Assembly: GCF_026210795.1 (NCBI RefSeq)
Contig: NC_089459.1
Span: 1,984,001 to 2,048,000 of the forward strand
Reading direction: 5' to 3'
Origin: Rhizophagus irregularis
Taxonomy: Eukaryota; Glomeromycota; Glomeromycetes; Glomerales; Glomeraceae
DNA length: 64,000 nucleotides
The first letter of the stretch is position 1. The number at the start of each line of letters is the position of its first letter. A program made the translations under genes and the position numbers. Shown in pieces: positions 25,307-60,988 of this stretch. The notes below the pieces were generated by a model. The model did no database searches. It was not told the DNA's origin and saw only the letters and a program-made list of their open reading frames with translations.

Positions 25307-28300
25307 ATGACTGAATCTCAACAAGATTTTGATGAAAATGTTAACGAAAAGAAGGTTTTAAAAAAGCTTTTAGTTCCAAAATAATTGACAAATCAAGAAA
25401 ATATTAAATTTAATTTCTTTCTTATTTAGAATCAAGAAATAAAAACTGAATCCACTATACCAGTTAGTGATAAAGAACACGATAATGTTTCTACACCTAA
25501 TAAATTAGATATTAATTTGGTAAATATAGATTTTAAAAGAATAAGTTTTGATATTAAAATTACAATTTTTTTTTTTCTTACGAATATTTAATTTATACAG
25601 GAAAACGAGGAAATAACAAGTAACGTGGATAATCAAACAAAACCTCCCAATGCTTTGAATGAATTAATTGACAACGAACAAAATTCTTCAAACTTTTCGG
25701 CTATTTCTAATGACGATAAACAAACCAGTTCTCCAAACATTTCGATCATTTCGAATGAAGATAGACAATTCAACCCTTCAACAACATTAAATAACAGTTC
25801 TCCAGAAATCTTGACCAGTTCAAATGAACCAAATAACGATAAGCAAAACAGCTCTTCAAACACTTTGAATGATTCATCTGACGATAAACAAAATTCTTCA
25901 GTCATTTCGAATGATGATAATGATAAACAAAGCAATGATGACAAACAAAGCAGTTCACCAAATATTTTTAATGATGATAAACGAACCATTTCTTCAAATA
26001 TTTCGAATGACGATAATGATAAACAAAGCAGTTCTCCAAATATCTTCAATGAAGATAAAAAAAGCAGTTCACCAAATATTTCGAATGACGATAATGATAA
26101 ACAAAGCAGTTCTCCAAATATTTTCATTGAAGACAAACAAAGCAGTTCTTCAAATATTTTCAATGAAGATAAACAAAGCAGCTCACCAAATATTTTTAAT
26201 GATGACAAACAAACCAGTTCTACAAATATTTCAAATGATGTAAAACAAATCTCTCAACCCATTTCACCCATTTCGAACGACGACAAAAAAACCAATTCTC
26301 CAACCATTTCACCCATTTCGATTGACGATAAAAAAACCAACTCTCAAACTATTTCACCCATTTCGAATGACGATAAAAATAATTCTCCAACCGCTTCATC
26401 CATTTCAAATGACAATGAAAAAATCAATTCTCCAACCGCTTCACCCATTTCGAATAAATTATATGATAATAAGCAAAATCAAACCACTTCGAATGAATAT
26501 TTAAATGATAGCTTGGTAAGTATTTAAAGTATAGTGTGGCATTAAATATCACTTTGAAATCACACAAGAACAAAACTTACAATTCTAAATATTAATGTTT
26601 TAGGAAGAATCCATTCAGCCCTCAGACACTAATAAAGATTCTTCTAACAGCGAAGATGATATTAGTTCGGTAAATATTTTTAATATCTGTCATAACATTT
26701 ATTAATTCCAATATTAAAATTTTTGACGACTATTAGAATGCAATCATGAGTGAATCAGAAATCCAAGATGAGGTTTGTTAAAACATCACTTCAAAATTAA
26801 AGATTTACGATTCTAATTATTTATTTATATTATGTATGACATGACTATTGATTCTTTTGACTGTTGAAAATTTGGAAAAACAAAACTCTTAGGAATATGA
26901 AATGGTTAAGGTTTGTTAAAGAGTAGCAATATCAAGAATTAAATTTACAATTCTAATTATTATGCTGAACCCAACAGCCCGCTGATTCTATTGAAGATCT
27001 TTCTAAGCATGAAACCAACGATGTTAACGATGTTGAATATAGTTTTATAAAAGAACATGATGTATGTTGCAACAATTAATCAATTCTTATTACTAAAACA
27101 AAGATATTTGAATGAATCTGAATCTCAATTAGAGAATAACAAATATAACTTCGAAATTCAGCTTAAGAACAGTTCTATTTTTTAATTTCTTAGAATTTCT
27201 CAGAGTCTATTATAGAAGATCCATCTAAACATAAGCCTAACGATGATGATATTAATATGGTAAAAAATTTAGTGCATGCTATATCATTTATTAATTCCTT
27301 TGATTTACAATAACGTTAAAAATTTGGTTCAAAAACAGAATAATGAAAATAAATCTTCAGTTAAGAAGGTTTGTTGATGAGTATTAAAGAATTACTTCGA
27401 TGTTGAACAAGAATTAAACTTAATAATCTAAATTTTTTCTAGTTTAATAATAATGAAATTGTTGAAAGCCCTTCCGATGATGAATATTATGATGATGATG
27501 ATGATGATTCGGTAAATATTTAGTATATTGCGCAATTTTATTAATTCTTTTTATTTATAATAAGATAAAATTTTTAACCAATAGCATAATGAATCCGAAT
27601 ATACCGAGAGGAAGGTTTGTTAATAAATGTTTAAATGTCGTTTCGGAATTGAACAACGACAGAACTTATAGTTCGAATATCGCAAACTTTTAGGAAGATC
27701 ATAAAACGATAGAAGAAGAAATTCAGCTCCCCATCACCGATGTTAATGAATCTAAATCATTTAATGTGTCTGATTATAATCTGGTACGTACGCAAATATT
27801 TGTTAAGTTCATTTGATTTTAACAACATTAAAAAATTAATTTTGAATCCAAAATAAAAATTTTTTGTATATTGAACCTAAAAAGGTTTGTTAACTATAAA
27901 AATTTGCAAAATTTTGCTCATAATAATGAATTCGATATCAATAACTTTATTTTTTATTAAAATTTTTTTAGAATGAAGTTCAATTTGTCGATCAACAAAT
28001 TCGCGAAAGACGACGACCCAACCAACATCAACAAGAATTATCATCACCTTCCGAAAATAATATCTCATTAAAAAATTCCAACGTTAGAACCGACACTCCA
28101 TCCATTTCTTTTCTTGAAATTTTTAAATATATTTTTTATTTATTTGTGGTTTTCGCTTTACTTTACTTTGTTTACGACGTTAACGTGAGTTACAAGTTAT
28201 TAAACCTTTTGTTTATATATGGTATCTTGAACAGTGTCTTACAATAATAATTCTTTTTTTTTTATAAATAGAGACTTAGTAATAAGCCCTCTTCTCTTCG

Positions 28301-29121
28301 AAATATTGCTGATATAACCAATAATATTTTTGAGGAAATTAATAGTGTTGAACTTCCAGGTAATTTTAAAAAAATTAATTTCTCGTTTAATATTTATTTC
28401 ATAATTATTAATCTATCTTAATGGTATAGACATAAATACAATATCGGACTATACAGTAGAATGCCGTAAAGCAGCAATTATGGCTGAAAGAAGTGCATCG
28501 TTTAAGTCTTATGGTAGCCAAATAGCAAAAGGATTATTCCAGATAGGGGATTCAATATATAAATCACGTCAATTATTACAATATATGTATAGTAAAGGTT
28601 CAACATTACGATCATCATTTGAATCAGAAATTGATGCGATATTGCAAAGACTGAATTCAAATCATATACGACAAGATGATGCAAAATATATTCGCGATAG
28701 ATTAGATAAACTAACGAAAAAAATTAAAGACGTTAGGTTATTGGTTGAAAAAAGTCATAATTCTATACTTGATGTAAGGAAAATTAGAAACAAGATGGAT
28801 GATGATATAACAAATGGATTAAAAGATGCTGAAAAATATAATAAGAATGAAAAATATTCATCTGATATCAGTAAAGTTAAGAAAGAACTTGAGAATGTTG
28901 ATAATACTTTATCTAAATTATATATTAATGTTGGTCATTTAGAAAAGTTGAGAGAAATTTTAAATGATCATGAAGGTAAATTAATGGGTGTTTCAGATGA
29001 ACTAGATGAACTTGAAGGCAAAACTAGAATTCTTAAACCTGATATCAAACATTTAATACTTGCTGTTGAGAATACAAAAGTTCGCAATCATATCTTTAAT
29101 AGGCTTGCTAATACTGATTAA
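25307..29121 (+). CDS. Array member 2: membrane/helical-domain protein with long micro-exon-encoded acidic tail
   Basis: Fifteen exons join in one frame to 844 residues: 25,307-25,354; 25,430-25,519; 25,601-26,515; 26,604-26,669; 26,737-26,772; 26,893-26,910; 26,978-27,061; 27,194-27,259; 27,339-27,368; 27,443-27,511; 27,585-27,614; 27,694-27,783; 27,972-28,184; 28,272-28,359; 28,430-29,121. Exons 1-12 are all multiples of three with phase-0 introns, as short as 18 bp (EYEMVK). They encode an acidic, Ser/Asn/Asp-rich disordered tail. Exon 13 carries a basic stretch then the membrane segment (YIFYLFVVFALLYFVYDV). Exon 14 is the linker (NNIFEEINSVELP). Exon 15 is the family helical domain (FKSYGSQIAKGLFQIGDSIY, MYSKGSTLRSSFESEIDAIL). 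The tail probably faces the cytosol. The exon model is mine from splice signals and frame; the smallest exons are the least certain. Confidence 0.75.
25640..26460 (+). repeat. Degenerate tandem repeat encoding Ser/Asn/Asp-rich units
   Basis: Exon 3 of array member 2 is built of imperfect units of about 12-20 codons on the pattern SSSPNIFNDDKQ or NSPTISPISNDDK. The repeats also keep other frames open on both strands, which I regard as shadows. The unit encodes a disordered acidic spacer. Confidence 0.8.
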
Positions 29122-59226: not shown

Positions 59227-60988
59227 TCAATTTTTCAAATAATCACATCCCAAACATATTATAATATCAGGAGTATTTCTAAAAGTGCATTTAGGACAAT
59301 CCCAATGAAATGGGTCAGAAATTAAATCGTCAACATCAGGTTCAGGCAAGTAAGATGACGTGTCATTATCGGGTGGTCTTTCAGTAAGACAGACATCACA
59401 TTGCGAAGCCATTGGACGATTTATAAATGTGCATTGTGAACAAGTCCACTGAGAGCCTTTCATACCTGGTAATTTTTCGGTTGGTATTCCGATTGGAGAT
59501 GATTTTGATGTTGTTGCTTTAACATTTGGTCGCGTGGTTGTTGAACCAACAGTTGGTTTCTTTATCACGGGTTCAGGCAAGTAAGATGACGTGCCATTAT
59601 CGAGTGGTCTTTCAGTAAGACAGACATCACATTGCGAAGCCATTGGACGATTTATAAATGTGCATTGTGAACAAGTCCACTGAGAGCCTTTCATACCTGG
59701 TAATTTTTCGGTTGGTATTCCGATTGGGGATGATTTTGATGTTGTTTCTTTAACATTTGGTCGCGTGGTTGTTGAACCAACAGTTGGTTTCTTTATCACG
59801 GGTTCAGGCAAGTAAGATGACGTGCCATTATCGAGTGGTCTTTCAGCAAGACAGACATCACATTGCGAAGCCATTGGACGATTTATAAATGTGCATTGTG
59901 AACAAGTCCACTGAGAGCCTATTGGAGATGATTTTGATGTTGTTGCTTTAACATCTGGTCGCGTTGTTGTTGAACCAACAGTTGGTTTCTTTATCCCAGA
60001 ACGATTTTGTTCACTTCCACACCAAAAATTATCTCTTGTTCTTCTTTCAGCTGCCATAGCAGCTAATTCCCTTGTAGGTAATCCATATCCTCCACTACTA
60101 CCACCCAATCTTCTTCCACCATTTGTCATTATTCGTTCAGTCTTTCGTCTTTTTTCAGCTGCTTCTAATGCTTTTTGTCTAGCCAAGGCTGGTGAAACAT
60201 TATGTGATATTCCTTCACCAACACGTTTTCCATCGCTAAAGAACCCTCCACCAGTAAATCCTTGAGTTAATAAAACGTCATATTCATCATTTAATTCATC
60301 AAGAAGGTTATAAAATGATGAATCATGTGGACCGAATTTAATATGTGTTAATCTAAAAAAAAAAGGTGAATTTTTTTAATAAAATGGGACAAATAACGTA
60401 AACACTATTTGTACTATAAATATGTACTCGTGCAACATTGTTTCGATTAAATGATCAAAATCATAAAATCGGCTTTGGTTATAATGCGGACGTAATCTTA
60501 TACATATTTTTTGACCATGATTTACGTTAATACCTAAAGTACGAGTAAAAGAAAAGAAACGAGTTTTAATGAAAATTATAATAATAAGAAATTTTCAAAA
60601 AAAAAATACTAACCGAGTAAATTTGCTTGATCGGGTAAAAATTCTTCCAAAGAACCTACGCGCCAATTTCGATTGTTCATTATAGGTATTACCTAATAAG
60701 GTAAAATAGCAAAAATAACTTCATATTCATAAGTCGAATTAAAGAAAAAAAAAACGCCAATTAAGAAGAAATAATTGTAGACTTTGTTTTTTTCTTCTTT
60801 TTTTTTTAATAAAAACCAATTTTTTTTTTTTAAATAATAATAAAAACCAATTTTTTTTTTTAAAAAAAATAAATTTTATTGCAAGTTACATGAGAAGCTA
60901 GTTTTTTCAATAAATTTAAGGCTTCTTCATGGTTTGAAAATTGAGTAAGTGAACGAAAATTTCTAATTCGATCTTCTCCTATACTCAT
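59227..60988 (-). CDS. WSS1: WLM-domain metalloprotease with RanBP2 zinc fingers (Wss1-like)
   Basis: Wss1/SPRTN-type proteases degrade proteins crosslinked to DNA. Exons from 60,988 encode MSIGEDRIRNFRSLTQFSNH, then VIPIMNNRNWRVGSLEEFLP, then LGINVNHGQKICIRLRPHYN, and the zinc site MLHELTHIKFGPHDSSFYNL (HExxH...GxH). The intron falls inside the codon for the catalytic Glu. The next part, LNDEYDVLLTQGFTGGGFF, is also typical WLM. The C-terminal half carries three near-identical RanBP2 fingers (WTCSQCTFINRPMASQCDVC) and one diverged finger (WDCPKCTFRNTPDIIICLGC). RanBP2 fingers often bind ubiquitin or RNA; they replace the SUMO- and Cdc48-binding tail of yeast Wss1. Its start is 193 bp from that of MDM12, on the opposite strand. 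Confidence 0.92.
59340..59998 (-). repeat. Tandem 231-bp repeats encoding zinc-finger units
   Basis: Near-identical units start at 59,340, 59,571 and 59,802 (period 231 bp, 77 codons); the third is shorter because a segment around IPTEKLPGMK is missing. Each encodes one RanBP2 finger plus a Ser/Thr/Pro linker. Low divergence shows recent amplification. Confidence 0.9.

What the first reader, a model, noticed from the sequence alone, without database searches (positions are those of the whole stretch)
25307..27783. Micro-exon tail made of duplicated phase-0 exon pairs
In array member 2 the tail is encoded by twelve exons, all multiples of three with phase-0 introns. They alternate: longer acidic exons followed by GTAAATATT-type donors, and short exons (18-36 bp) followed by GTTTGTTA-type donors. 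The introns after each class also resemble one another, so exon pairs were duplicated with their introns. Any exon can be skipped without breaking the frame, giving potential for very many protein isoforms. The layout is like the micro-exon genes of schistosomes, which encode variable host-interacting proteins; the comparison is by analogy only.
Basis: partly seen in the sequence, partly recalled or inferred. Interest (0 to 1): 0.85.

Follow-up and report, generated by a model that had tools for sequence, protein, structure and literature searches.

The report
Micro-exon array in fungal membrane-protein gene
One gene of what is probably the plant-root fungus Rhizophagus irregularis carries a run of small, frame-neutral exons that look like repeated copies of an exon pair together with its introns; whether the fungus really mixes these exons into many protein forms is untested.

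Summary
All twelve exons (25307-27783) are multiples of three in phase 0 and join one open frame. With splice matrices from 20 introns outside the tail (hand-picked, no RNA), the best phase-0 chain is exactly the nine small exons 26604-27783, score 99.9; 0 of 100 shuffles (best 20.3) and 0 of 192 tiles (best 76.2) reach that. Introns were copied too: 9 of 66 tail intron pairs have z>=3, against 0 of 234 comparisons with controls. The unit is about 250 bp: long acidic exon, intron A, short exon, intron B. The array is worn (a probable lost long exon, two probable dead short exons), so alternation is not strict. The gene belongs to a small family of single-pass membrane proteins; no like array was seen in relatives and no second copy of the unit was found in the genome. 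Four acceptors are weaker than all controls: skipping is plausible but unproven. No signal peptide is evident; which side of the membrane the tail faces is unsettled. The host-facing schistosome analogy remains only an analogy; truffle NACHT-ANK genes are a fungal precedent.

The parts
25307..29121 (+). Gene m2: 15 predicted coding exons, 844 aa: acidic low-complexity N-terminal tail, one membrane segment, helical C-terminal domain
25307..25354 (+). Exon 1 (48 nt), start codon; weak donor GTTTTAAA (score 1.0)
25430..25519 (+). Exon 2 (90 nt)
25601..26515 (+). Exon 3 (915 nt), internal tandem repeats of 36/78 bp and 45/87 bp
26516..26603 (+). Intron 3: resembles class B introns (z 9.6), not class A (z 0.4)
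26604..26669 (+). Exon 4, long acidic (66 nt)
26670..26736 (+). Intron 4, class A (67 nt); weak acceptor (-1.5)
26737..26772 (+). Exon 5, short (36 nt), donor GTTTGTTA
26773..26892 (+). Intron 5 (120 nt): B-like start and A-like end, probable trace of a lost long exon
26893..26910 (+). Exon 6, short (18 nt), donor GTTTGTTA
26911..26977 (+). Intron 6, class B (67 nt); weakest acceptor of the tail (-5.0)
26978..27061 (+). Exon 7, long acidic (84 nt)
27062..27193 (+). Intron 7 (132 nt): A-like start (z 3.5) and a probable dead short exon near 27105-27134 with no GT donor; its end is not significantly B-like
27194..27259 (+). Exon 8, long acidic (66 nt)
27260..27338 (+). Intron 8, class A (79 nt); weak acceptor (-2.7)
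27339..27368 (+). Exon 9, short (30 nt), donor GTTTGTTG; least certain exon
27369..27442 (+). Intron 9, class B (74 nt)
27443..27511 (+). Exon 10, long acidic (69 nt)
27512..27584 (+). Intron 10, class A (73 nt); strongest pair with intron 8 (z 7.5)
27585..27614 (+). Exon 11, short (30 nt), donor GTTTGTTA
27615..27693 (+). Intron 11, class B (79 nt); weak acceptor (-2.6)
27694..27783 (+). Exon 12, long acidic (90 nt)
27784..27971 (+). Intron 12 (188 nt): A-like start (z 4.2, also B at z 2.6) and a probable relic short exon with its donor at 27885 but no acceptor close upstream; its end is not significantly B-like
27972..28184 (+). Exon 13: juxtamembrane segment + transmembrane helix; no in-frame ATG before the membrane segment
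28272..28359 (+). Exon 14
28430..29121 (+). Exon 15: C-terminal all-helical domain shared by the family

Best explanation
The tail is an old, partly worn tandem array of a roughly 250-bp unit (long acidic exon, intron A, short exon, intron B) inside one member of a small membrane-protein family. Because both exons of the unit are symmetric and phase 0, copying or losing an exon, or a whole unit, does not break the frame; the array could therefore grow by local duplication and shrink by exon loss, lengthening a 514-residue acidic, low-complexity tail of a single-pass membrane protein. Shown here from DNA: exon structure beyond chance, phase, duplicated introns, traces of worn units. Inferred: that the exons are spliced as predicted, that the tail is disordered and lies in the cytosol as a flexible acidic arm, and that weak acceptors make inclusion of some exons variable.
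For: Exon chain recovered with outside splice matrices, 0 of 100 shuffles and 0 of 192 tiles as high; same tail exons by an all-phase search, score 262.5 with the real insert against a maximum of 174.7 in 100 shuffles of it. Exon reading frame has the best coding score in 13 of 13 exons scored. Intron pairs: 9 of 66 with z>=3, against 0 of 156 and 0 of 78 in controls. Repeats spaced 250, 252, 262, 246 and 270, among other spacings; offsets peak at 250. Intron 5 mixed, introns 7 and 12 A-like at the start; probable relic short exons. Hand models of window relatives m1, m3-m6 have no array, and no run of symmetric exons was seen upstream of them or in six copies elsewhere that were fetched. No second copy of the tail or of the paired donor found in a comparable setting. 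Exon 13 has no in-frame ATG, so it needs an upstream coding exon. Tail net charge -69 over 514 residues.
Against: No transcript data. The 20 training introns were picked by eye (12 from family genes, two of them this gene's own later introns; 8 from neighbouring genes). Acceptors of introns 4, 6, 8 and 11 score below all 20 leave-one-out controls, so some junctions may be wrong or little used. Exon recovery depends on training: 5 of 9 with only the 8 introns of unrelated genes, 7 of 9 without the one GTTTGT control intron. The all-phase search over-predicts: it strings 10 to 17 mostly asymmetric small exons upstream of three relatives. Third-position excess between duplicated exons is not convincing (2, 5, 7 differences at positions 1, 2, 3 over 24 codons); introns are more alike between units than exons are. 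In one search a control intron (intron 13) reached z 2.4 against class B, so z of about 3 for intron 5 is modest; relic p-values of about 0.01 are uncorrected for 12 comparisons. Charge flanks support a cytosolic tail in m1 and m3, barely in m4, and not in m2, m5, m6 or the C9 copy.
Confidence: 0.68

Rival explanations
1. Combinatorial splicing: exons 2-12 are individually included or skipped, giving a large repertoire of tail isoforms that vary during symbiosis or life stages, as in schistosome micro-exon genes or truffle NACHT-ANK genes.
For: All twelve exons symmetric in phase 0; four weak acceptors; fungal precedent in the mycorrhizal truffle (PMC4986451 and PMC10197012, passages).
Against: No RNA evidence. 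Array is old (adjacent units 74-79% identical over ungapped columns of gappy alignments) and holds probable dead exons, so it is not obviously maintained for diversity.
Confidence: 0.25
2. Neutral expansion: the array is spliced constitutively into one invariant acidic tail; symmetry reflects the only kind of exon duplication that survives, and there is no regulated diversity.
For: Phase symmetry is expected for any surviving exon duplication; acidic composition is kept in most array exons while sequence is not.
Against: Four acceptors that score below zero, where 33% of all AG sites in the window score zero or more, are unexpected if every junction must be used in every transcript.
Confidence: 0.45
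3. Part of the array is not coding: some exons (first of all 27339-27368, 26978-27061 or 26737-26772) are relics that the spliceosome ignores, so the real tail is shorter.
For: Weak acceptors; these exons are changed or dropped in some robustness runs; probable relics lie nearby in introns 7 and 12.
Against: All nine small exons are open in the reading frame with donors scoring 5.4 to 8.8; 11 of 20 random training subsets recover all nine, the worst six.
Confidence: 0.25
4. Two separate genes: an acidic-repeat gene (exons 1-12) and a membrane-protein gene starting near exon 13.
For: Hand models of relatives m1, m4, m5, m6 begin 3 to 25 residues before the membrane segment.
Against: Exon 13 has no in-frame ATG before the membrane segment and begins at an acceptor-like site; exon 12 ends in a donor, not a stop.
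Confidence: 0.05

Closest known systems
Schistosoma mansoni micro-exon genes, in particular SmVAL6 (domain exons plus small-exon tail) and MEG-4/10.3 (tandem repeats)
   Same: Many small symmetric exons in a row, skippable without loss of frame; a conserved domain joined to a small-exon tail (PMC4015677, passages).
   Different: No signal peptide evident here; only 4 array exons of 36 nt or less, under 5% of the coding sequence; no sequence comparison with them was made; splice variants not shown.
Tuber melanosporum NACHT-ANK family with codon-sized alternatively spliced micro-exons
   Same: A mycorrhizal fungus with frame-neutral micro-exons (PMC4986451, PMC10197012, passages).
   Different: 3-bp exons in a receptor family, with reported alternative splicing; here 18-90-nt exons in a membrane protein with no NACHT or ankyrin match in Pfam at E<=1.
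Aphid bicycle and megacycle genes
   Same: Many small same-phase internal exons; megacycle genes arose by internal tandem duplication with shared intron positions (PMC9168663, passages).
   Different: Bicycle exons are almost all phase 2 and the genes are insect salivary effectors; here phase 0 and no signal peptide evident.
R. irregularis SP7-like effectors
   Same: Same probable organism; hydrophilic imperfect repeats (PMC11333574, passages).
   Different: SP7-like proteins have a signal peptide and act on plant splicing factors; here no signal peptide evident and a membrane segment.

Membership tests
Schistosome-type micro-exon gene | Symmetric exons (excision keeps the frame) | tested here: met
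   12 of 12 tail exons
Schistosome-type micro-exon gene | Micro-exons form a large share (up to 75%) of the coding sequence | tested here: not met
   114 of 2535 bases in array exons of 36 nt or less; 489 in the nine-exon array
[quoted passage not shown] three have membrane anchors) | tested here: not met
   hydropathy only, no signal-peptide predictor: best 15-residue mean in the first 60 residues -0.58; strongest hydrophobic window is residues 564-582
Schistosome-type micro-exon gene | Isoforms by exon skipping | not testable with these tools
   no RNA data held
SP7-like effector | Signal peptide followed by hydrophilic imperfect repeats | tested here: not met
   hydropathy; definition from PMC11333574 passages
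Tuber NACHT-ANK micro-exon family | NACHT and ankyrin domains | tested here: not met
   Pfam scan of the 844-aa protein at E<=1: two sub-threshold matches, neither of these
Aphid bicycle gene | Internal exons in phase 2 | tested here: not met
   tail exons all phase 0

The most novel reading that the evidence does not exclude
An arbuscular mycorrhizal fungus carries a true combinatorial micro-exon machine: tandemly duplicated exon pairs with weak acceptors give a membrane protein whose disordered arm differs in length and charge from transcript to transcript, and the unit number varies between isolates.
Probability: 0.2. Interest if true: 0.75.

Novelty: new variant of a known kind. Interest (0 to 1): 0.5.

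Why it matters
Genes with many small skippable exons are known from flatworm and aphid host-interaction genes, with one truffle family as the fungal precedent found in my searches. An array in the model root symbiont with living, mixed and probably dead units side by side would let the birth and death of micro-exons be read directly, and the published long-read RNA of this fungus could show at once whether it makes protein diversity.

Tried and rejected
Paralogous tails elsewhere: a DNA search of the tail (2 candidates scored) found only itself and a 33-base GAT-rich match (L010 read). The family search found 13 matches, 7 of them on C31. Gene searches upstream of window relatives m1, m3-m6 and of the copies on C31, C9, C11 (one of two again), C3, C24 and C12 show no run of symmetric phase-0 exons, but this search over-predicts and is no proof of absence: it gave 10, 15 and 17 mostly asymmetric exons at m1, the C31 copy and a C11 copy, and it does not reproduce my hand models of m1, m3 and m4, whose membrane segments it drops. 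The N-terminus of m1 is uncertain. Donor-pair pattern: 6 matches, 2 here and 4 in unrelated satellite-like repeats on C1 and C23; 3 for the reversed control pattern. A search with the exon-13 segment found itself and four weak matches with a stop (E 0.08). Fold comparison of the C-terminal domain (AlphaFold mean pLDDT 82, 8 sequences): no match at E<=0.001; weak resemblance to long helical bundles, ClyA-like ones among them, TM mostly under 0.5, not used. Pfam and PDB sequence searches gave sub-threshold or weak coiled-coil-type matches. rRNA searches meant to identify the organism found nothing; the organism rests on genome size and contig number (146.75 Mb, 32 contigs; 146.77 Mb, 32 scaffolds, PMC10234402 passages). 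Third-position test of coding constraint: inconclusive. The all-phase search ends exon 13 at 28082, which would drop the membrane segment; I kept 28184 because relatives keep theirs. A spliced model of a minus-strand neighbour failed and was not used; six of 19 first control-intron borders were wrong and were dropped or re-read before use. A survey of random genome stretches was planned and dropped, so how common such arrays are here is known only for 192 tiles.

Papers: PMC11333574, PMC10234402, PMC9168663, PMC4015677, PMC11121469, PMC10197012, PMC1184071 and PMC4986451 were seen as passages only; all others as search listings. DeMarco 2010 (schistosome MEGs) was not held. Iotti 2012 (truffle) was seen only as cited. 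Literature searches; no title or abstract start that they listed names a micro-exon array in an arbuscular mycorrhizal fungus; most subscription papers are not in that library. PMC11121469 states that functional microexons were not described before in filamentous fungi, which sits badly with the truffle report and with microexons noted in Phanerochaete P450 genes. Positive-inside and long-N-tail reasoning is recalled knowledge.

Full report
Where it lies. The window is contig 31, 1984001-2048000, of a 146.75-Mb genome in 32 contigs. Size and contig number match the published Rhizophagus irregularis DAOM197198 assembly of 146.77 Mb and 32 scaffolds (PMC10234402, passages). The identification is an inference; rRNA searches found nothing.

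Observation. All twelve tail exons are multiples of three in phase 0. I scored splice sites with matrices from 20 introns outside the tail (picked by eye, without RNA: 12 from family genes, two of them this gene's own later introns, 8 from neighbouring genes) and codons with odds from the C-terminal exons of six family members. The best phase-0 chain in 26500-27999 is exactly the nine small exons 26604-27783, score 99.9. Of 100 dinucleotide shuffles none reaches it (best 20.3), and of 192 tiles of 1500 bases from both strands of the window and nine other stretches none does (best 76.2, three exons; the longest chain among the top eight tiles had seven exons at 29.7; two of the top three tiles are parts of the tail itself). 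With a higher intron cost (8) the chain keeps seven of the nine exons, score 72.5, above all 192 tiles (best 68.2).

An all-phase search found the same twelve tail exons; shuffling the insert dropped its score from 262.5 to a mean of 117.9, maximum 174.7 of 100. It must be read with care: upstream of relatives it strings together 10, 15 and 17 small exons, of which 2, 4 and 5 are multiples of three of 100 nt or less. So many small exons alone mean little; that all twelve here are symmetric does. Robustness is good but not perfect: 11 of 20 random training subsets of 14 introns recover nine of nine, the worst six; using only eight introns of unrelated genes recovers five of nine.

Duplication. 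With splice-site letters trimmed, 9 of 66 tail intron pairs have z of 3 or more; none of 156 tail-control or 78 control-control pairs do (best 2.96). Ungapped repeats recur at 250, 252, 262, 246 and 270 bases, besides spacings such as 222, 368, 475, 590 and 842. Counting 30-base windows with at least 23 identities gives 39, most at offset 250, against a shuffle mean of 0.1 and maximum of 3 in 50; four of 43 window tiles have more, one being the repeat-rich exon 3. Units starting at 27194 and 27443 align with their exon borders in register and are identical at 167 of 225 ungapped columns. So the unit is long exon, intron A, short exon, intron B.

Wear. Intron 5, between two short exons, is B-like at its start (z 2.9) and A-like at its end (z 3.2), as if a long exon was lost; a control intron reached z 2.4 in the same test, so this is modest on its own, though introns 5 and 6 also pair at z 6.6. 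Introns 7 and 12 start A-like (z 3.5 and 4.2; intron 12 also B-like at 2.6). Intron 7 holds a short-exon-like stretch with no GT donor, and intron 12 a short-exon donor in register with no acceptor close upstream (p about 0.01 each for the best of three comparisons, uncorrected). Their ends are not significantly B-like. Intron 3 is B-like although it follows a long exon.

Family. The gene is member 2 of a cluster of six in the window; the genome search gave seven matches on C31, one on C9, two on C11 (one with a stop) and weaker ones on C3, C24 and C12. Members share a membrane segment and a C-terminal domain of long helices (mean pLDDT 82) with no clear relative in Pfam or the PDB. In the models scored, the part before the membrane segment has 3 to 128 residues in m1, m3-m6 and the C9 copy, and 563 in m2. 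The paired-donor pattern occurs elsewhere only in satellite-like repeats on C1 and C23.

How it likely works. Symmetry makes copying and losing exons harmless to the frame (direct from the sequence). The encoded tail is acidic (net -69 of 514) and poor in hydrophobic residues, so probably disordered (inference; disorder was not computed). No hydrophobic stretch stands near its start, so translocation of such a long tail is unlikely on general grounds and a cytosolic tail is my best guess; but the charge flanks favour it only in m1 and m3, barely in m4, and not in m2 (-1 before, +2 after), m5, m6 or the C9 copy. Four acceptors score below every leave-one-out control, so skipping is plausible for exons 5, 7, 9 and 12, but it is not shown. 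Introns are more alike between units than exons (mean z 4.9 and 3.5 against 1.9 and 1.9): the exons changed at least as fast as the introns, and I cannot tell relaxed from diversifying change.

Known kinds. Works like: schistosome micro-exon genes, SmVAL6 above all, and truffle NACHT-ANK genes with codon-sized micro-exons. Member of: none of these by the features tested. I call it a new variant of a known kind, of moderate interest until RNA is looked at.

Noticed in passing
window 25933-26455: Exon 3 holds tandem repeats of 36/78 bp and 45/87 bp (75-84% matches), so the tail grew both by repeats inside one exon and by exon pairs.
   Followed up: partly
L033-L036 (C1:7508786, C23:3698484): Satellite-like repeat (124-bp spacing on C23) that happens to carry AAGGTTTGTT; unrelated to the array.
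   Followed up: no
C2, C3, C8, C12, C15 (capped list): A 35-base motif recurs about 108 bases apart, with copies in opposite orientation some 3 to 10 kb further on: probably ends of a repeated mobile element.
   Followed up: no
C11:778043-778693 and C24:2735770-2736000: Family matches interrupted by stop codons, possible pseudogenes.
   Followed up: no
window 28082: A second in-frame donor in exon 13 would remove the membrane segment; possible soluble form or a modelling artefact.
   Followed up: no
L029 (C12 copy): Distant relative whose modelled N-terminus has a strongly arginine-rich stretch just before its membrane segment, which would fit a cytosolic N-terminus.
   Followed up: no
window 59339-59920: Tandem repeat of 231 bp, 2.5 copies, 98% matches.
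   Followed up: no
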